This document shows, piece by piece, positions 7,155 through 34,315 of a DNA stretch of 37,165 nt. This DNA comes from a virus. Every line of letters starts with the position of its first letter. Position 1 is the first letter of the stretch. The stretch is from positions 1-37,165 of IMG/VR virus record IMGVR_UViG_3300035698_012912. One strand, written 5' to 3'. Both the position numbers and the translations under genes were made by a program. The notes beneath the pieces were generated by a model. It was not told the DNA's origin, did not search any database, and saw only the letters and a program-made list of their open reading frames with translations.

Positions 7155-7226
7155 GGGCTGGTAGCTCAAATGGAAGAGCACCGCGTTTGCAACGCGGAGG
7201 CGAGGGTTCGACTCCCTCTCGGTCCA
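7155..7226 (+). tRNA. tRNA-Ala (anticodon TGC)
   Basis: A full cloverleaf of 72 bases. Acceptor GGGCTGG pairs with TCGGTCC, including a G3-U70 wobble, the key alanyl-tRNA synthetase identity element. D stem GCTC/GAGC, anticodon stem CCGCG/CGCGG around TTTGCAA, T stem GAGGG/CCCTC around TTCGACT, discriminator A. CCA is not encoded. It lies between the portal stop and the GroES promoter, so it is probably processed from the portal transcript. A single tRNA inside a head module is unusual. Confidence 0.95.
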
Positions 7227-8222: not shown

Positions 8223-8346
8223 ATCAGCCCCCAGAGCAATCCAAACCAAGAATGTTGCTTAGTTGATGACAAGCGATAGAGAAGCTTACGACGGTAAGGG
8301 CGGGAATTAGTCAGCCCCCTTGGTTTGGATTGCTCTGGGGGCTGAT
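8223..8346 (+). repeat. 28-bp perfect inverted repeat before the capsid gene
   Basis: Bases 8223-8250 and 8319-8346 are exact reverse complements (arm begins ATCAGCCCCCAGAGC), separated by 68 bases. The right arm also takes part in a shorter, overlapping hairpin, so the two folds exclude each other. Confidence 0.9.
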
Positions 8347-8423: not shown

Positions 8424-9461
8424 ATGCCCCAAAATACAAATGACATCCTGAATTCCGGCGCTGCAGCTAAAGGTGGAAACACCCTCAACACCGTCGACAT
8501 TCCTGAAATTTATTCGAACACCTTTGCAACCCAGAATGGCCTGTTGGCTGTTTCCAGTGCACTCGGTGCCCAAATCAACTTGGTGAAGCCCATCGATCGC
8601 GAGCGCAGGCTTGCCATTTATGACACGGACATCAACCCGTCCACCAAGACTGACTTCAGCAAGCACGCTGTAGGAACCGCCAACACCGCCGAGCGGACTG
8701 TTGCAGTTGGTTCCATCTCCGCGCAGATTGCCTGGAGCAAGAAGCAGACTGAAGACTTCCGTGCCCGTCTGGCACAGGGAGACCTTGAGGCTGTTGTCAA
8801 CAGGCAGACTGTTGACAGCTTCGAGAAGAGCTGGAATGAAGGGTTCTCCGGTCTTGATAACGGATTCGTCCGCGAGACTCCGGTTGTCACGCATGTTGCA
8901 GACACAATTGCCGCGAAGGTAGTTGATGATTCAATCCCGCAGATTGCCATTGAGGACATGACTGGCGTCAACACTTTTGCCAAGGCTGTTGCCCTGGCAA
9001 AGAGGAGCATCGCTCAGGCATCCAACGGCTCGAACAGAGCTGACGGTTTGATTGTCCCTGACGACTTCGAGCTGATCGACGAACTGAACAAGGCTGAGGT
9101 TGCTGCCGATCAGTTCACTTCGAATGCTCATGGTCTGGTCAGTGCAACTGACTTCACCCTGGCACAGATTGTCGCTGCCAACGATGTTGTCACCGATACC
9201 GGCAAGCGAGTCATCGCTGTTGTCGCTCACTTCGCCAATAACTTCGAGGCGCTGATTGAAGGCAGCCTAGATGTTAGCGTTGGAAACGGAATCCTGACCA
9301 ACACGGACGGTGCTGTTGTTTGGAGCACCTCCGAGATGGGCGGAAAGATCGTCACCTACGAGCAATACGGAACCGAGTGGTTCAAGTATGCCAGCCAGAT
9401 CTGCGTCATTACACGCGGAACCGGTGCAGCTCCCGCAGGATACGACAACATCGAGGCCTAA
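8424..9461 (+). CDS. Major capsid protein
   Basis: A 345-aa protein after the scaffold gene, of the size expected for an HK97-fold shell protein. The N-terminus (NTNDILNSGAAAKGG) is followed by a conserved-looking VDIPEIYSNTF... segment. Codons are noticeably more C-ending than in neighbouring genes, as in highly expressed genes. It has its own leaderless promoter, and a strong terminator closes the unit. Homomultimeric shell assembly is inferred; the HK97 fold is not proven by motif. Confidence 0.85.
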   Translation: MPQNTNDILNSGAAAKGGNTLNTVDIPEIYSNTFATQNGLLAVSSALGAQINLVKPIDRERRLAIYDTDINPSTKTDFSKHAVGTANTAERTVAVGSISAQIAWSKKQTEDFRARLAQGDLEAVVNRQTVDSFEKSWNEGFSGLDNGFVRETPVVTHVADTIAAKVVDDSIPQIAIEDMTGVNTFAKAVALAKRSIAQASNGSNRADGLIVPDDFELIDELNKAEVAADQFTSNAHGLVSATDFTLAQIVAANDVVTDTGKRVIAVVAHFANNFEALIEGSLDVSVGNGILTNTDGAVVWSTSEMGGKIVTYEQYGTEWFKYASQICVITRGTGAAPAGYDNIEA

Positions 9462-25232: not shown

Positions 25233-26588
25233 ATGATGGTCAAAAATACCGATTACGGAAAATTGGAAAGAGGGATTGAGCAATACAAGCTCAGCTCTGG
25301 ATCTCTGCGTTGGCGGGTAAGATTTAGCGATGAGAGCGGCAAGAATCGATCCAAGACATTTACCAATGTCAGCAAAGCACGATCATTCTATGCTGCTGTA
25401 CTTGTATCAGCGGAACGAGGCGAGCGCCCATCTGTATTCGCCGGCCAAGAGTCAATCACGCTGGCGGAATTTGCCGTAGATATATGGACACCAGAAGTCA
25501 AGAAGTACAAGGCTGCTGCGACCTGGGACCGCGACAAGCGGGTTTTCCACAATCACATTCTGTACAAGCTCGGCGACCGAGCTCTGTCGCAGATAGACAC
25601 CGAAGATATTCTTGACTGGAAGAAGGAGCGAGAGGATAAGGGCGTGGGAGCGGCGACAATTGCCAAGGCTCTTTCCCTACTGTCCTCAATATTTCAGGAA
25701 GCAATGATGCGCCAGCGCACAACCGGGGTTAAAGAGAACCCGACGATTGCGATCAAGAAGCCCAAGGTTTCGAACAATCGTGCCGTCAGGGTCTACCCGT
25801 TGGAAGCCGTGGAAATGATTTGCCAGCTGCTCCGGGCGCCACGGTTTAGTGATCGCATTGGAAAACGGCGCGAATTCTTGGCCTATCAGGACGCCGCATT
25901 TTTGGAGATCATGTTGCAGACTGGAATGAGGCCGGCAGAATTGATGGCGCTGAAGTGGGCTGACATTTCCGACGACCGTATTATTGTTGACAAGGCCTAT
26001 GGACTCGAGGGAATCAAGGAAACAAAGACCGGCAAGAGCCGTTCAATTCCGATTCTTGACACGCTGGAAAATGACTTGAAGATTCTGAGGCAGAAGCAGG
26101 ATAGGGATCAGGCGGCTCGGAAAAACCGGCCATCTGAATATGTGATCTGCTCGGCGACCGGAGACCATTGGCAGCAGCACGACAAGAACAATTGGCACAA
26201 GCGCCACTTCAAAAGCGCCGCTCGTAAGACTGTCAGCTGGTGGGCGGAGCTGAACAAGCGGGAAAAGTTGCCGGAAGATTTGCTGGATTCGATCAAGGGA
26301 TTACTGACAGCCAGGCCCTATGAACTCGGGCGCCATACCCATTCTGCCCTGCATCTGTCAACCGGTATTACGCTGATCGAGTTGAGTCAAATTCAGGGGC
26401 ACAGCGTCAGGACATTGTCAGAGGTATATGCCCACCAGTTGACCGTCAGGGCCGGCGCCACGGCCGCAGAAGAAATAACCGAAGCCCGGGATCGGGTTCA
26501 GAAATTGATGAAGACCGTTTATCAAGTGCAGTCAAGAAGCGAGCAAGAAGCGAGCAAACAAAACGAAAGAAGGATGCAGCCCGTATGA
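25233..26588 (+). CDS. int: Tyrosine integrase
   Basis: A 451-aa recombinase. The N-terminal arm-binding/SAM-like part (about 10-170) is followed by the catalytic domain. First Arg in QTGMRPAELMALKW (about 231), Lys near KTGKSRSIPI, the RHTHSALHL box (about 365-373), IQGHSVRTLSEVYAHQ with the His (about 390) and the catalytic Tyr (about 399). Completes phage integration at a tRNA-Thr gene using attP at 27716-27760. The stop overlaps the following gene (ATGA 26585-26588). Either ATG 25233 or 25236 can be used. Confidence 0.95.
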   Translation: MMVKNTDYGKLERGIEQYKLSSGSLRWRVRFSDESGKNRSKTFTNVSKARSFYAAVLVSAERGERPSVFAGQESITLAEFAVDIWTPEVKKYKAAATWDRDKRVFHNHILYKLGDRALSQIDTEDILDWKKEREDKGVGAATIAKALSLLSSIFQEAMMRQRTTGVKENPTIAIKKPKVSNNRAVRVYPLEAVEMICQLLRAPRFSDRIGKRREFLAYQDAAFLEIMLQTGMRPAELMALKWADISDDRIIVDKAYGLEGIKETKTGKSRSIPILDTLENDLKILRQKQDRDQAARKNRPSEYVICSATGDHWQQHDKNNWHKRHFKSAARKTVSWWAELNKREKLPEDLLDSIKGLLTARPYELGRHTHSALHLSTGITLIELSQIQGHSVRTLSEVYAHQLTVRAGATAAEEITEARDRVQKLMKTVYQVQSRSEQEASKQNERRMQPV

Positions 26589-27383: not shown

Positions 27384-27525
27384 CTTGAGGGGTTGGCCGC
27401 AATGCTGCCACCGGTCAATGACCCTGGTCGGCCGGCCATACTTGACCCTCCAGGATGCTAGAAACGGATCACGCAAAAGGTTCGATGAAAGTTACGCAAA
27501 AGGTTCTTCCGTAAAAAGCGGATAG
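27319..27525 (+). CDS. Small zinc-finger-like protein
   Basis: A 68-aa product with MRIQCHRCQHRDIC and WPQCCHR, i.e. Cys8, Cys11, Cys17 and the Cys29-Cys30-His31 cluster, consistent with a compact zinc ribbon. GTG 27319 is positioned by GATCAT. The C-terminal third is encoded by repetitive DNA (a 23-bp-period repeat) and may be unstructured. It sits immediately left of attP. Function unknown; regulatory or recombination-related use is possible. Confidence 0.55.
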   Translation: MSFMRIQCHRCQHRDICTTENSLRGWPQCCHRSMTLVGRPYLTLQDARNGSRKRFDESYAKGSSVKSG

Positions 27526-27548
27526 TTTCTTCCGTAAAAAGCGGATAG
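27471..27548 (+). repeat. 23-bp-period direct repeats left of attP
   Basis: ACGCAAAAGGTTC occurs at 27471 and 27494; a 22-bp unit (core CCGTAAAAAGCGGATAG) occurs at 27504-27525 and 27527-27548. All have a 23-bp period. The first 22-bp copy contains the stop of the zinc-finger ORF. Confidence 0.85.
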
Positions 27549-27595: not shown

Positions 27596-27626
27596 CCCCC
27601 ATATCACCCCCATATCACCCCCATTT
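27596..27626 (+). repeat. attP left arm: three 11-bp repeats
   Basis: CCCCCATATCA at 27596-27606 and 27607-27617, and CCCCCATTT at 27618-27626. Period is 11 bp (about one helical turn). Mirrored by the right-arm repeats at the same distance from the tRNA-Thr core. Confidence 0.75.
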
Positions 27627-27715
27627 AGATCACAGTCTGCGAGCTGCTGATATCAATAACGGCATAAACCTATTGGCAGAGCCAAGATATTTTGCCCCTA
27701 AGATTGCTGACCTAA

Positions 27716-27760
27716 TCCATGGTAAGGAAGGGGTCTCCGGTTCGAATCCGGATCCGGGCT
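27716..27760 (+). other. attP: attP core: 3' half of a tRNA-Thr gene (GGT anticodon)
   Basis: Contains the anticodon loop ATGGTAA (GGT), the 3' anticodon-stem strand GGAAG, T arm TCCGG-TTCGAAT-CCGGA, acceptor strand TCCGGGC and discriminator T. The 5' half of a tRNA is absent; identity to a tRNA breaks at the 5' side of the anticodon stem (AATCC instead of CTTCC). Integration here would restore the host tRNA-Thr. Flanked symmetrically by arm repeats. Confidence 0.82.
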
Positions 27761-27856
27761 TGTAGCAAACGCAGACAGAGAGCCACAAACAAGCACTATC
27801 GGCACAGAGTAATAACGGTCAGAATGTCGGTCTGTGACCCCATATACAACCAGTGT

Positions 27857-27889
27857 CCCCCATATGGCCCCCATATGGCCCCCATATGG
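27857..27889 (+). repeat. attP right arm: three 11-bp repeats
   Basis: CCCCCATATGG at 27857, 27868 and 27879. Same unit as the left arm in its first nine bases. Distance from the core end is about 96 bases, versus about 89 on the left. Confidence 0.78.
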
Positions 27890-27938: not shown

Positions 27939-28307
27939 CTAGGAGAAATCAGGGCCGAGAAAATCCTTCAATTCTTCAGGATGCGCGGCAATTTCCTCAT
28001 CAGTTGGGTCAAGATTTTCCTCTTTTTTTATGCGCTCCATATCCATATACGCAGCAATTATGATGTCGCCAGCAATCTCGCCCTGGAGCACGGCCTCAAA
28101 ATTGTCAGGCATTTTTTTGGCCTGATCCATGGCCGCCGAGCATTGATCCAGACAGTCAGTGGTCATCAGCGCCGGCCGCGACTGGAAAAAATCTGTGACC
28201 CAATCGCTGTATCCGGAAATCATTCGCTCCTCCCAGGTGCCCTCTATTGGCTCAGCCCTAGTCTCAATTCGAAATACCTTGCATGCTGCTTTCTGGATCC
28301 GGTTCAT
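27939..28307 (-). CDS. Unknown protein, paralogue of the next gene
   Basis: 122 aa from ATG 28307, placed after AGGAG (28316-28312) and overlapping the stop of the leader ORF. Contains SDWVTDFFQSRPALMTTDCLDQCSAAMDQAKKMP (cited as the region around residues 34-67), a W-V-x2-FF-x2-P ... C-L-DQC pattern repeated in the next gene. The C-terminal half is Glu/Asp-rich. No known family. A TTG at 28343 is in frame but its promoter spacing is wrong. Confidence 0.65.
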   Translation of the reverse strand: MNRIQKAACKVFRIETRAEPIEGTWEERMISGYSDWVTDFFQSRPALMTTDCLDQCSAAMDQAKKMPDNFEAVLQGEIAGDIIIAAYMDMERIKKEENLDPTDEEIAAHPEELKDFLGPDFS

Positions 28308-28336
28308 GATGCTCCTGAAATCTCGTAGTTTGTCAT
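28304..28336 (-). CDS. Leaderless 10-aa leader ORF
   Basis: ATG at 28336 follows the -10 TATCAT (28348-28343) with the standard seven-base spacing. The product MTNYEISGAS ends in TGA overlapping the ATG of the 122-aa gene (ATGA, 28307-28304). It would allow leaderless initiation to feed a Shine-Dalgarno gene by coupling or act as a regulatory leader peptide. Confidence 0.5.
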   Translation of the reverse strand: MTNYEISGAS

Positions 28337-28342
28337 GGGTCA

Positions 28343-28348
28343 ATGATA
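28343..28348 (-). promoter_or_regulatory. Leaderless -10 for leader ORF and 122-aa gene
   Basis: TATCAT on the minus strand, seven bases before ATG 28336. Confidence 0.65.
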
Positions 28349-28394
28349 GGTGTAGAAATCCTGAAGTGTGGGATATATCAAAGACCCCTGTGAA

Positions 28395-28673
28395 TCAGTG
28401 AAATCCTTTCCGGCATGATATGCCCCTTGACAACATGAGCACTTCTGAGATCGCGCCGTACGCCTGCTTTCGGGCATCGTATGGTTCCTTCTCTGCTGCT
28501 CGGATCGAAGCCATGCACTGGTCTTGGCAACTCGGATCAATCAAGCGCGGCTGAGCATCGAAGAATGAATGGATCCAATTGATCGTCCAATATTGGATCT
28601 GCTCCATTTCATAAATCTGATCCTGAAGATATTCAATCTGAACTTCAAGATCAGATTTTGTCTTGGCAGCCAT
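28395..28673 (-). CDS. Unknown protein, paralogue of the 27939-28307 gene
   Basis: 92 aa. Shares W-x2-NWIHSFFDAQPRLIDPSCQDQCMAS (residues about 29-55, region) with SDWVTDFFQSRPALMTTDCLDQCSAA of its neighbour, then AEKEP versus AKKMP. The N-terminus is a coiled coil. Two adjacent diverged copies point to duplication. ATG 28673 follows CACAAT on the minus strand. The Cys-x3-Cys-type pair (C..DQC) might bind a metal or form a disulfide. Function unknown. Confidence 0.65.
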   Translation of the reverse strand: MAAKTKSDLEVQIEYLQDQIYEMEQIQYWTINWIHSFFDAQPRLIDPSCQDQCMASIRAAEKEPYDARKQAYGAISEVLMLSRGISCRKGFH

Positions 28674-28751: not shown

Positions 28752-29954
28752 TCAGCTGCGCATCTGCACTGATCCGGCAAGATACTTCCCCCCACCGCCA
28801 ATCTCCAGCGGCTTCCCGGCGCCATCAACAAAGACCGGATCAACCCGTTTGGTTTCAATTGTCCAATCTTCATGACCGGCATCGCGAGAATGAAGCCCGG
28901 GAATATCTGGCAGGGAATAGGAATGCAACGCGATTAGGTTCCGGTGTCCGGTTCTGGCCACTACCTCTATATCAATTCCCCTAGCCTTTATTGTTTTCTT
29001 GAACCCGTTCCTCGAGGCTGAGCAGATAGAAGTAAGATCCCCGATAGTCCAAGATGTATCAGCGCCGAACCCGTCCTGAAAATCCCTGAGCGTTGCCAGC
29101 GCTGCTATGGTCACCAACTCTTTTGCGCTCCATGGGTTCTCCAGATCGCCCATGATCGCCATAACAAGATCAAGGGAACCAAAGAAGGATCCGGCGAAAG
29201 ACTTTCCCGTTTGGTCTTTCCAGATCTCAGCCATATCATCGGCCGCTGCATCGAGCTGATCAACATCAAACTCAACTCTCTGATCCTTGGATCCCGGTGA
29301 ACTAGACATACCGATCACGCCCTTGCTCTGTGCCCCGTGGAGCGCGCCTGATAGTGATTGGACGGAATAATGACCAGACATGCATGAAGACGACCCGGGA
29401 GCTAGAGGAGCGACGAGAGCAGAAAAGGAGACTCGCCACGAAAACATTTCCCAATTCTCCACATAAGGATCTTGGCTAGCGGTTGGGAGCTGGGAGCTAG
29501 GAGATTCTTGGGAGCTAGAAAAAGGCCCTGTCCCTAGTTGTTGATCTTGATGCATACGAATAAGGAATTGCCAGCGATTGACAATTAGATGAAGGACAGC
29601 ACGGAGCTCGGGCGCTGTGAGATTGTCTGATCCTTGATTGATAAGATGGGAGCTAGGAGCTGAAGCTTTTAAGGCCTCGGTGAGATTATAAATCTGTGCG
29701 AAAAATTCGCGATCGACTCCGCGTGGCGCTTGGTCTTCGCCGCCGGCAATCAGATCAGCCATATTGGAAATGACAAATGACATGACCACGGCGCTGATCA
29801 TCGCCCCGAACTTTGATGAAATCCAATTGCGAAACTCTTGGGGATTAGCCGGAGGAGTCTGAGGCAAAGTCATTCGCCGTTCTATTTCATCGGTTGTTTC
29901 TTTCTCGAGCTGGTCAGATACATCTCCCAGACCCTGGACTGTGGTGTTGAACAT
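28752..29954 (-). CDS. 400-aa protein, candidate replication initiator
   Basis: Starts at ATG 29954, fixed by CATATT (29966-29961). N-terminal Glu-rich part, then a hydrophobic stretch (about 48-70, FGAMISAVVMSFVISNMADLI). A Ser/Pro-rich low-complexity middle (about 140-215) is followed by an HTH-like segment in TSWTIGDLTSICSASRNGFKKTIKARGIDIEV (about 295-325, region). Divergently faces an iteron array with flanking inverted repeats, and carries four GGGAGCTAG motifs in its own sequence. Replication role is inferred from context only; a repressor or partition protein is an alternative. Marked composition difference from the virion genes. Confidence 0.5.
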   Translation of the reverse strand: MFNTTVQGLGDVSDQLEKETTDEIERRMTLPQTPPANPQEFRNWISSKFGAMISAVVMSFVISNMADLIAGGEDQAPRGVDREFFAQIYNLTEALKASAPSSHLINQGSDNLTAPELRAVLHLIVNRWQFLIRMHQDQQLGTGPFSSSQESPSSQLPTASQDPYVENWEMFSWRVSFSALVAPLAPGSSSCMSGHYSVQSLSGALHGAQSKGVIGMSSSPGSKDQRVEFDVDQLDAAADDMAEIWKDQTGKSFAGSFFGSLDLVMAIMGDLENPWSAKELVTIAALATLRDFQDGFGADTSWTIGDLTSICSASRNGFKKTIKARGIDIEVVARTGHRNLIALHSYSLPDIPGLHSRDAGHEDWTIETKRVDPVFVDGAGKPLEIGGGGKYLAGSVQMRS

Positions 29955-29960
29955 ATTGCG

Positions 29961-29966
29961 AATATG
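29961..29966 (-). promoter_or_regulatory. Leaderless -10 for the 400-aa gene
   Basis: CATATT on the minus strand, seven bases before ATG 29954. Confidence 0.68.
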
Positions 29967-29998
29967 CCACACATTTTGAAGAGCACGGCAATTCTCTC

Positions 29999-30166
29999 AA
30001 AGATTGTCATTTTCTTGAGACGAAGTACAGTTAATATATAGAAGCTTCTATACAAGTAAAGGCAAGTAAAGGCTAGTAGGAGCTAGTAAGGGCTAGTAAG
30101 GGCTTTCTTAAATAGTAAAGAATATAGATATAAACGGTACATCGTATCAAGAAAATGACAATCTTT
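29999..30166. other. Candidate replication origin: inverted repeats, palindrome and iterons
   Basis: AAAGATTGTCATTTTCTTGA (29999-30018) is the exact reverse complement of 30147-30166. Between them are the 16-bp palindrome TATAGAAGCTTCTATA (30037-30052), five tandem 10-bp repeats (30053-30102) and an AT-rich stretch (30103-30146). The layout is that of an iteron plasmid origin or a partition site, beside a possible Rep gene. Origin function is inferred. Confidence 0.6.
30053..30102 (+). repeat. Five 10-bp iteron-like repeats
   Basis: CAAGTAAAGG (twice), CTAGTAGGAG, CTAGTAAGGG (twice); consensus CWAGTARRRG, period one helical turn. Directly abuts the 16-bp palindrome. Confidence 0.9.
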
Positions 30167-30255
30167 ACTCAGATCGTTCCTAAGGGCATCAATTCCTTTA
30201 CTTATCCGCTAACACCTAGAAAGTGAAAATGTGCCTGAGATCGCCGGAGAACGCG

Positions 30256-30288
30256 CCTCTGTGCATATTATGACCATATGCACAGAGG
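30256..30288 (+). promoter_or_regulatory. 13-bp perfect inverted repeat
   Basis: CCTCTGTGCATAT pairs with ATATGCACAGAGG around TATGACC. It lies 47 bases before the ATG of the 208-aa gene and could be an operator or hairpin in the region upstream of its promoter. Confidence 0.85.
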
Positions 30289-30335: not shown

Positions 30336-30962
30336 ATGAGTGATTCGAATGAAAGGAAGGAGAAAAGAAAGCCGCATACCAAAGAGCGGCATGATGTGAC
30401 CAAGCTTCTCCGCATTCGCAGGGAGTCAGGCATCTCAGCCAAGGCCGATGATCCACGGATCCGAGACAAGAAAGAGGGCGATGCACACCTGGCTGCGCGG
30501 CAAGCTGCCTTCAATGCTTCGCTGTCTAGGTCTGTCTTTGTCAAGAAAACCTACAAGGATTTTCTCATTGAGCTTTCCGGGAGTATTGAGGATGATGGAA
30601 TCCCGAAGGAGTATATCGGGAAGATTATCGCGCTATCGATCAAGCGCTGCTATCACCGCGACATTCCCGTGCACCTGCAAACCGCCGGCCGGCTATACCG
30701 CCCGCCACAGGAGCAGATTGAGAAGGCCGTTCACACAACCATTCGCCAGTTTTATGATTATCAAGTATTGACAAAGTCAGATGATCAGAGCCCCGCCGCT
30801 TTCATCGCTGAGCAAGACAAACAGGATGCAGATAATCAGGAGCACCTGCGACAGCTAGACAAGATCGGCGATCAATTCCGAAATTCAGAGAGGCATATTC
30901 CCAACACGGAATCATGGGCAAAGAGAAAAAAGAAGCGTGACGAGAAGCTAGAAGAAGGATAA
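30336..30962 (+). CDS. Basic, helical unknown early protein
   Basis: A 208-aa protein. The N-terminus (1-50) and C-terminus (about 180-208) are rich in Lys, Arg and Glu, suggesting nucleic-acid binding. The central part (about 70-150) is predicted helical (TYKDFLIELSGSIEDDGIPKEYIGK...). No recognised domain. It has its own promoter and an inverted repeat upstream, and is transcribed divergently from the candidate Rep with the origin region between. It might assist replication or regulate it. Confidence 0.6.
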   Translation: MSDSNERKEKRKPHTKERHDVTKLLRIRRESGISAKADDPRIRDKKEGDAHLAARQAAFNASLSRSVFVKKTYKDFLIELSGSIEDDGIPKEYIGKIIALSIKRCYHRDIPVHLQTAGRLYRPPQEQIEKAVHTTIRQFYDYQVLTKSDDQSPAAFIAEQDKQDADNQEHLRQLDKIGDQFRNSERHIPNTESWAKRKKKRDEKLEEG

Positions 30963-32676: not shown

Positions 32677-32737
32677 ATGCAGGGATTGATGGATTGTTTA
32701 TTTATGCACAGATCAGCGTACCCGTTTCTTATTGTGG

Positions 32738-32743
32738 CAGATT
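32738..32743 (+). promoter_or_regulatory. Leaderless -10 for the metallophosphoesterase
   Basis: CAGATT ends seven bases before ATG 32750; the in-frame TTG 32732 is thereby excluded. Confidence 0.6.
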
Positions 32744-32749
32744 TATGCT

Positions 32750-34315
32750 ATGAGTAAACCAATCAGCCGACCGAAAGGAGGCAAGAATGATCAGCAGGAA
32801 ACCAACACCACCAAAAAGACCAAGGCAACAAAGGAAGAGATTCTTGCCGTAGCCGAAGAGTGCCGGGGGAATCTAGATTTGATTGCCCATACTCTAGGTG
32901 TTTCACCCCGAACCCTCGGAACTAGAATGCATCAACATTCAGATGTTAAGGATATGGTTGAGTTCTACCGCGAGCAGGCCAAAATAATGGACCCGCTCGA
33001 GATAGAAACAATAAAAGATGAACAGTCTTTTGTCGTTTCCAATTTACCGGACGGAGCCAACTTCACGCCGGAGCTTCTTTTGGACCATGTTGGGTTGGAT
33101 CCAACCGCTTGGATTATTACCAACGTTAAGGCGATTGGCAATCACTGGGGGAACCCGGACATGCCGAGCAGCCAAATCAAGCTAATCTTGTCGTGTAAGC
33201 AGAAGACCGAAGACGGATTGCGAGAGTTGGAAAATATTGGAGTTCATAGAGATTACCTGAAGCCGATTATCGAAAACGATTATAAGCCGCCAGTGTCTGG
33301 CCGGCTAATTCTCAGCCGCAAAAAGGGGCAAGAGCGCTGGCTAATTCTCAGCGATCAGCATGCGGGAAGTTCGATTGATTGGGTACAGGCTCACGCAACG
33401 GTAAGAGCGCTCAAGGATATCAAGCCGACGCATGTGCTATTCGGCGGCGACCTACTCGACCTCGGCGCCATTGCCCGCCACGCCAAACAGGACAAATCAT
33501 TCGAGCGGCCGGTGATGTATGACATCGATTGCGGCGCATGGTATCTGCATATGATTATAGAGGCTGCGGTCAAGGCGAACAGCAAGGTGCAGTTCATCAT
33601 TTTGATCGGTAACCACGACACTATCGCAATGCGCAAGCTGCTAGACAAGGCACCCTGGGTGCTCGATATGGCGAACCCGACCGGATTCGGTGATCAAAAA
33701 CCATTCATGGCTTTTGAGTCATTCCTGAATCTGCAGCATCTCCGGGATAAATTCAAGGTCAGTATAGAGATGGCGCTTAATGACAAGAGCCAGATGGATC
33801 GCTATCTTAATCAGGTGGTAGATATCGCTGCTGATTTCTCATTCTCCCACGGCACTAAGACCGCAGCGGGGTCAGGTAACAGCGCCCGCAAAAAGAGTAT
33901 GAACAAGGACTATGGGGTCGGGCAGGGACATGTTCATCGTCTAGCCATCGGGCACCGGACGATGTATGGAATAGGCGGCGAAAGCAAAGTATTAGCCTAT
34001 GCCGAAGCCGGCTGCAGCTGCCGGGCGAATGTCTGCTATTCGGAAGATCAAGAGATAGACTGGCAGCAGGGCGCCCTGGTCGTGACCGTGGATAACCCAA
34101 CCGGGAAGTTTGAAGACACGACCTCACGGCAAGAGCTAATCAGGTATAACGAGAACAGCGCAGAACTCACCTGGAGAGATTACAAATGGAGCGCTGAAAA
34201 GTTCATGAAGCCAGATGCTAACCCGACGCCGAAGCCGGTATTGAATAAGTGGCAGGCAGCCGGCTACCCGGAAATCAGAGACGGGTTCTACGCACGAGGG
34301 GGAAGGATCGGATGA
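32750..34315 (+). CDS. HTH-metallophosphoesterase
   Basis: 521 aa. N-terminal HTH (about 28-60, EEILAVAEECRGNLDLIAHTLGVSPRTLGTRM as region), a small middle domain, then a calcineurin-like phosphoesterase. Metal motifs are SDQHAG (about 201), GGDLLD (about 232), GNHD (about 286), FSHG (about 364) and GHVHR (about 393). All five metal-binding blocks are present, so it should be active. Substrate unknown: DNA end processing, a cyclic nucleotide or another phosphodiester are possible. Such HTH fusions are known from phage genomes. Overlaps the next gene by ATGA. Confidence 0.85.
   Translation: MSKPISRPKGGKNDQQETNTTKKTKATKEEILAVAEECRGNLDLIAHTLGVSPRTLGTRMHQHSDVKDMVEFYREQAKIMDPLEIETIKDEQSFVVSNLPDGANFTPELLLDHVGLDPTAWIITNVKAIGNHWGNPDMPSSQIKLILSCKQKTEDGLRELENIGVHRDYLKPIIENDYKPPVSGRLILSRKKGQERWLILSDQHAGSSIDWVQAHATVRALKDIKPTHVLFGGDLLDLGAIARHAKQDKSFERPVMYDIDCGAWYLHMIIEAAVKANSKVQFIILIGNHDTIAMRKLLDKAPWVLDMANPTGFGDQKPFMAFESFLNLQHLRDKFKVSIEMALNDKSQMDRYLNQVVDIAADFSFSHGTKTAAGSGNSARKKSMNKDYGVGQGHVHRLAIGHRTMYGIGGESKVLAYAEAGCSCRANVCYSEDQEIDWQQGALVVTVDNPTGKFEDTTSRQELIRYNENSAELTWRDYKWSAEKFMKPDANPTPKPVLNKWQAAGYPEIRDGFYARGGRIG

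What the first reader, a model, noticed from the sequence alone, without database searches (positions are those of the whole stretch)
29397..30288. Plasmid-like replicon: iterons, palindrome and 20-bp inverted repeats beside a candidate initiator
Seen: a 20-bp perfect inverted repeat (29999-30018 / 30147-30166) encloses a 16-bp palindrome, five 10-bp repeats and AT-rich DNA. The divergent 400-aa gene carries four GGGAGCTAG copies (29397, 29492, 29510, 29648), and AGGAGCTAG recurs inside the array (30078). Known: iteron origins next to rep genes with autoregulatory sites. Inferred: the 400-aa protein binds these repeats to start replication, or to partition an extrachromosomal prophage.
Basis: partly seen in the sequence, partly recalled or inferred. 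Interest (0 to 1): 0.78.

Follow-up and report, generated by a model that had tools for sequence, protein, structure and literature searches.

The report
Possible replication origin of temperate phage
In a complete temperate phage of an uncultured freshwater actinobacterium, the repeats and easily melted DNA between two divergent genes are real and probably form the phage's replication start or early-gene switch; the phage integrates into the chromosome, so this is not a plasmid-style replicon, and nothing shows that the neighbouring 406-residue protein is the initiator.

Summary
The sequence features are confirmed. The 20-bp perfect inverted repeat extends to 49-nt arms (84%). Inside it lie a 16-bp palindrome and five 10-bp direct repeats. 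It holds the least stable 50-, 100- and 150-bp windows of the genome, and GCTAG, the core of both repeat types, is the most locally clustered 5-mer of the genome. The window is a complete circular temperate siphophage (127-bp assembly overlap) with a tyrosine integrase and an attP in a tRNA-Thr(GGT) gene matching freshwater Solirubrobacterales, so an extrachromosomal plasmid-like prophage is unlikely. The 406-aa ORF is longer than chance allows but has no relative in any collection searched, no family match and an unusable AlphaFold model; a winged-helix initiator profile test was negative. Its coding signal fails exactly where the GGGAGCTAG copies lie, reminiscent of lambda O, whose gene carries its iterons in mid-gene. 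Best reading: phage origin with overlapping divergent promoters (0.42). The main rival, an early/immunity operator region without origin function, is nearly as likely (0.36). Without relatives or experiments the two cannot be separated. A second long hairpin upstream of the capsid gene shows that long hairpins in this phage need not mean an origin.

The parts
28752..29972 (-). 406-aa orphan ORF, candidate initiator or regulator; start codon uncertain (GTG 29972 or ATG 29954)
   Evidence: Longest stop-free frame of the region is 414 codons against at most 234 in 1000 shuffles. No relatives and no family match. Codon score positive at both ends, negative in 29372-29672.
29397..29656 (+). Four GGGAGCTAG copies (29397, 29492, 29510, 29648) inside the 406-aa ORF, read in two different frames, in the low-complexity Ser/Pro linker region
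29999..30047 (+). Left arm of the 49-nt imperfect inverted repeat (first 20 nt perfect)
   Evidence: fold z -8.8
30037..30052 (.). 16-bp palindrome TATAGAAGCTTCTATA
   Evidence: sequence
30055..30104 (+). Five 10-bp direct repeats (AGTARRGGCT)
30024..30173 (.). Least stable 150-bp window of the genome (z -4.3); the minima for 50 and 100 bp also fall here: candidate unwinding element
30118..30166 (-). Right arm of the inverted repeat; carries the best promoter-like match (TTGATA-18-TATATT, minus strand, 30150-30121), directed through the array towards the 406-aa ORF
30256..30288 (.). Operator-like palindrome, 13-bp arms with 7-bp spacer, 47 bp before the 208-aa ORF
30336..30962 (+). 208-aa orphan ORF, divergent partner, predicted all-helical with low confidence
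   Evidence: Coding score 0.146 per codon; no relatives; model pLDDT 63

Best explanation
The 29.4-30.3 kb segment is the early control region of a temperate Solirubrobacterales phage and most likely contains its replication origin. Shown: tandem 10-bp repeats with an AGCTAG/GGCTAG core sit in the genome's most easily melted DNA, framed by a long imperfect inverted repeat, between divergent orphan genes, and the same core recurs in the linker part of the minus-strand gene. Inferred: a phage protein (the 406-aa product or, less likely, the 208-aa product) binds the GCTAG repeats, melts the AT-rich stretch and recruits host replication proteins after infection or excision, while its binding also shuts off the overlapping minus-strand promoter. 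This would work like lambda O/ori-lambda, not like an autonomous plasmid.
For: Least stable 50-, 100- and 150-bp windows of the genome. GCTAG the most clustered 5-mer, strand-biased. 10-bp array. IR z -8.8. [quoted passage not shown] No replication protein was recognised among the scanned ORFs, so an unidentified initiator is expected. Promoter-like matches 4 against 1.1 expected.
Against: No relatives, so no test of conservation. No initiator domain: Pfam HTH_36 gave no candidate in the whole genome and a home-made wHTH profile does not pick the ORF. The four in-gene copies are irregularly spaced (95, 18, 138 bp), and a 10-bp unit is short for iterons. No cluster of DnaA boxes. GC skew follows gene direction and does not mark an origin. 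AT-rich, repeat-bearing intergenic DNA between divergent genes is equally expected of a regulatory switch. Another long hairpin (8223-8346) lies far away.
Confidence: 0.42

Rival explanations
1. Divergent early/immunity regulatory region without origin function: the 10-bp array and the palindromes are operators of a lysis-lysogeny switch between the minus operon (406-92-134 aa) and the plus early genes. The in-gene GGGAGCTAG copies are further binding sites or mere expansions of a low-complexity linker.
For: Position between divergent operons next to the integrase; operator-like palindromes; promoter-like matches overlapping the repeats; no other recognised repressor among the scanned ORFs; minus operon supported by the paralogous 92- and 134-aa ORFs.
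Against: A genome-minimum melting window and a 49-nt inverted repeat exceed what operators need. No known repressor domain in either orphan protein.
Confidence: 0.36
2. Structured RNA element: the inverted repeat is transcribed and folds into a long hairpin (leader, antisense or RNA-based origin).
For: RNA folding z -5.7 on both strands. The phage has a second long hairpin with terminator-like features upstream of the capsid gene. RNA-based prophage origins are known in mycobacteriophages (PMC7157519).
Against: No Rfam match in the region; no U-tract after the stem; no relatives for covariation; tandem DNA repeats in the loop are not explained.
Confidence: 0.12
3. Insertion of a MITE-like 168-bp element with terminal inverted repeats.
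For: 168 bp bounded by a perfect 20-bp inverted repeat, AT-rich compared with the phage.
Against: No second copy in the phage or in 232 genomes of the host order. The exact 20-mer is absent from IMG/VR contigs. No clear target-site duplication. The GCTAG motif continues outside the element.
Confidence: 0.05
4. Partition site: the 10-bp tandem repeats are a centromere bound by a phage ParR/ParB-like protein.
For: Tandem direct repeats of about 10-11 bp near a promoter resemble parC-type sites (own knowledge).
Against: No ParA, ParM or ParB match in the scanned ORFs; an integrase and attP make partition unnecessary.
Confidence: 0.05

Closest known systems
Phage lambda ori / O initiator (lambdoid origins)
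   Same: Direct repeats inside the middle of an early gene and an AT-rich melting stretch; in Stx phages two added iterons merely add 13 residues to the protein (PMC7466680).
   Different: Here the AT-rich stretch and a second repeat array lie upstream of the gene, not beside the in-gene copies. Spacing is irregular, the unit is 9-10 bp against 19 bp, no relation of the protein is detectable and no helicase loader was found.
Iteron plasmid origins (e.g. P1 RepA)
   Same: Tandem direct repeats next to a candidate rep gene and overlapping its likely promoter.
   Different: 10-bp unit, no Rep family match, and the element is an integrating phage.
RepA and RNA-based prophage origins of cluster A mycobacteriophages (PMC7157519)
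   Same: Actinobacterial temperate phages whose origin could not be read from known replication genes alone.
   Different: Those phages replace the integration cassette with parABS. This phage has an integrase and attP and no recognised parABS.
cI/cro-type divergent operator regions of temperate phages
   Same: Divergent early genes, palindromes and overlapping promoters.
   Different: No repressor family recognised; tandem 10-bp repeats and a genome-minimum melting window.

Membership tests
Iteron-type plasmid replicon | Initiator gene of a known Rep family beside the repeats | tested here: not met
   No Pfam, PHROG, NCBIfam or PDB match for the 406-aa ORF; HTH_36 gave no candidate; own wHTH profile negative
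Iteron-type plasmid replicon | Tandem direct repeats beside an AT-rich melting region | tested here: met
   (unit only 10 bp)
Iteron-type plasmid replicon | Autonomous extrachromosomal maintenance | not testable with these tools
   Needs cloning; integrase and attP argue that the prophage integrates
Lambda-type phage origin | Initiator-binding repeats within the initiator gene's linker | tested here: inconclusive
   Four GGGAGCTAG copies in two frames in the weakly coding middle; binding unknown, spacing irregular
Lambda-type phage origin | Helicase loader or helicase gene downstream | tested here: not met
   None recognised in PHROG, Pfam or NCBIfam scans of neighbouring ORFs
Extrachromosomal (parABS) prophage | Partition genes and no integrase | tested here: not met
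   Tyrosine integrase 25233-26588; no par match
MITE | Multiple copies and target-site duplication | tested here: not met

The most novel reading that the evidence does not exclude
A new initiator family: an orphan 406-aa protein with a bipartite origin, a helically phased 10-bp array in the promoter-proximal melting region and dispersed copies of the same core inside its own coding sequence, joined by looping.
Probability: 0.15. Interest if true: 0.6.

Novelty: new member of a known kind. Interest (0 to 1): 0.3.

Why it matters
No replication protein of this phage is recognisable, and the paper search here turned up no study of Solirubrobacterales phages. If the region is the origin, it narrows the search for a new initiator to a few orphan genes. 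If not, it is an ordinary phage control region.

Tried and rejected
Homology of the 406-aa and 208-aa proteins in phages, plasmids (406 aa only), IMG/VR, GTDB contigs (406 aa only), 399 Thermoleophilia genomes (406 aa) and 232 genomes of the host order (208 aa): nothing. By eye the C-terminus of the 406-aa protein resembles a wHTH (SAKELVTIAAL...SASRNGFKKTIK); Pfam HTH_36 found no candidate in the genome, and a profile from nine relatives ranked other ORFs of the window above it, so I dropped it. AlphaFold without an alignment gave pLDDT 36 for the 406-aa and 63 for the 208-aa protein, so no fold search was run. A distant relative phage contig in a Solirubrobacterales genome (G176:C2) shares head and tail genes only and has no comparable hairpin or repeat array. 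GC skew is uninformative. No enrichment of DnaA boxes. MITE rejected. Further IMG/VR searches with the terminase, portal, capsid and phosphoesterase proteins found no close relative.

Full report
What the window is. The window is a whole virus record of 37,165 bases. Its first 127 bases recur at its end, the usual sign of a circular assembly, so the phage genome is about 37,038 bp and probably complete. It encodes a terminase, portal, scaffold, minor head protein, tape measure, tail proteins, endolysin and a tyrosine integrase. The portal resembles those of Streptomyces and Gordonia phages distantly.

Host and lysogeny. Beyond the integrase and the gene that follows it lies the 3' half of a tRNA-Thr(GGT) gene (27716-27766). 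The same sequence is found in tRNA-Thr genes of three actinobacterial MAGs, two of them named Solirubrobacterales. For L006 the match runs 51 bp, past the end of the tRNA gene (TTGTAGC), with two differences that exchange one base pair of the T-stem. Five CCCCCATAT copies flank the core (27597-27624, 27857-27889), placed like arm-type integrase sites. A contig in a genome of the same order holds a distant relative of the head and tail genes. The phage therefore probably integrates into tRNA-Thr of a freshwater Solirubrobacterales, which removes the need for a plasmid-like prophage.

The observation. All features are present at the stated coordinates. Three tests show that they are not chance: the hairpin (z -8.8 as DNA), the local clustering of GCTAG (10 of 35 copies in 981 bp, the top 5-mer cluster of the genome), and the 10-bp array (13 matches against 3.4 expected genome-wide). 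The region also holds the least stable 50-, 100- and 150-bp windows of the genome.

The inverted repeat. The 49-nt arms differ at positions 21, 26, 31, 35, 40, 43, 45 and 46, and every mismatch is purine against purine on the + strand. The first five fall about every 5 nt. I have no explanation; the strand's general purine excess accounts for part of it.

The 406-aa ORF. It is not a chance frame (414 codons against at most 234 in 1000 shuffles), and it probably heads a minus-strand operon with two small paralogous ORFs. It has no detectable relative and no family. Its codon score is positive at both ends but negative in 29372-29672, where all four GGGAGCTAG copies lie, three in one reading frame and one in another. 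[quoted passage not shown] This resemblance is a lead, not membership. The domain tests were negative, the spacing is irregular and no helicase loader was found.

Mechanism. I judge an origin with overlapping divergent promoters slightly more likely than an operator region alone. The reasons are the melting minimum, the array inside it and the absence of recognised replication genes. The anatomy fits both. The strongest promoter-like match lies in the right arm and points through the array at the 406-aa ORF, so autoregulation by an array-binding protein is plausible in either case. Steps shown: repeats, stability minimum, gene arrangement, likely integration site. Steps inferred: protein binding, melting, recruitment of host replication proteins, autoregulation.

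Caution. A second long hairpin, with 28-bp perfect arms, lies upstream of the probable capsid gene (8223-8346). It can alternatively form a terminator-like stem, so long hairpins in this phage may serve transcription. This lowers the weight of the inverted repeat as an origin mark.

Verdict. Observation confirmed; plasmid-like interpretation not supported; phage origin plausible at 0.42 against a regulatory switch at 0.36. The thing is probably an ordinary type of element in an unexplored phage lineage, with an orphan protein that deserves a test.

Noticed in passing
8223-8346: Second long hairpin (28-bp perfect arms, 68-nt loop) just upstream of the 345-aa gene at 8424, probably the major capsid gene. 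The right arm can instead pair with TCAGCCCCC near 8312 and is followed by TCTCTTTT, a possible terminator/antiterminator pair.
   Followed up: partly
27597-27889: attP: tRNA-Thr(GGT) 3' half (27716-27766) flanked on both sides by CCCCCATAT direct repeats, likely integrase arm sites.
   Followed up: yes
27504-27548: Exact tandem 23-bp repeat TTCTTCCGTAAAAAGCGGATAGT next to the attP arm, possibly excisionase sites.
   Followed up: no
27939-28673: 92-aa and 134-aa minus-strand ORFs are paralogous (29% over 51 aa, E about 1e-6) and without known family.
   Followed up: partly
7155-7226: A tRNA-Ala(TGC) gene sits directly after the portal gene, inside the structural module.
   Followed up: no
32732-34315: 527-aa protein with a Fis-type HTH and a metallophosphoesterase domain, distantly related to a mycobacteriophage protein annotated as a recombination directionality factor.
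   Followed up: partly
29999-30166: Mismatches of the inverted repeat are all purine-purine on the + strand, and the first five are spaced about 5 nt apart.
   Followed up: partly
L034/L035 (G176:C2): 35-kb contig in a Solirubrobacterales-order genome is a distant relative phage with a serine recombinase; only head and tail genes are shared.
   Followed up: partly
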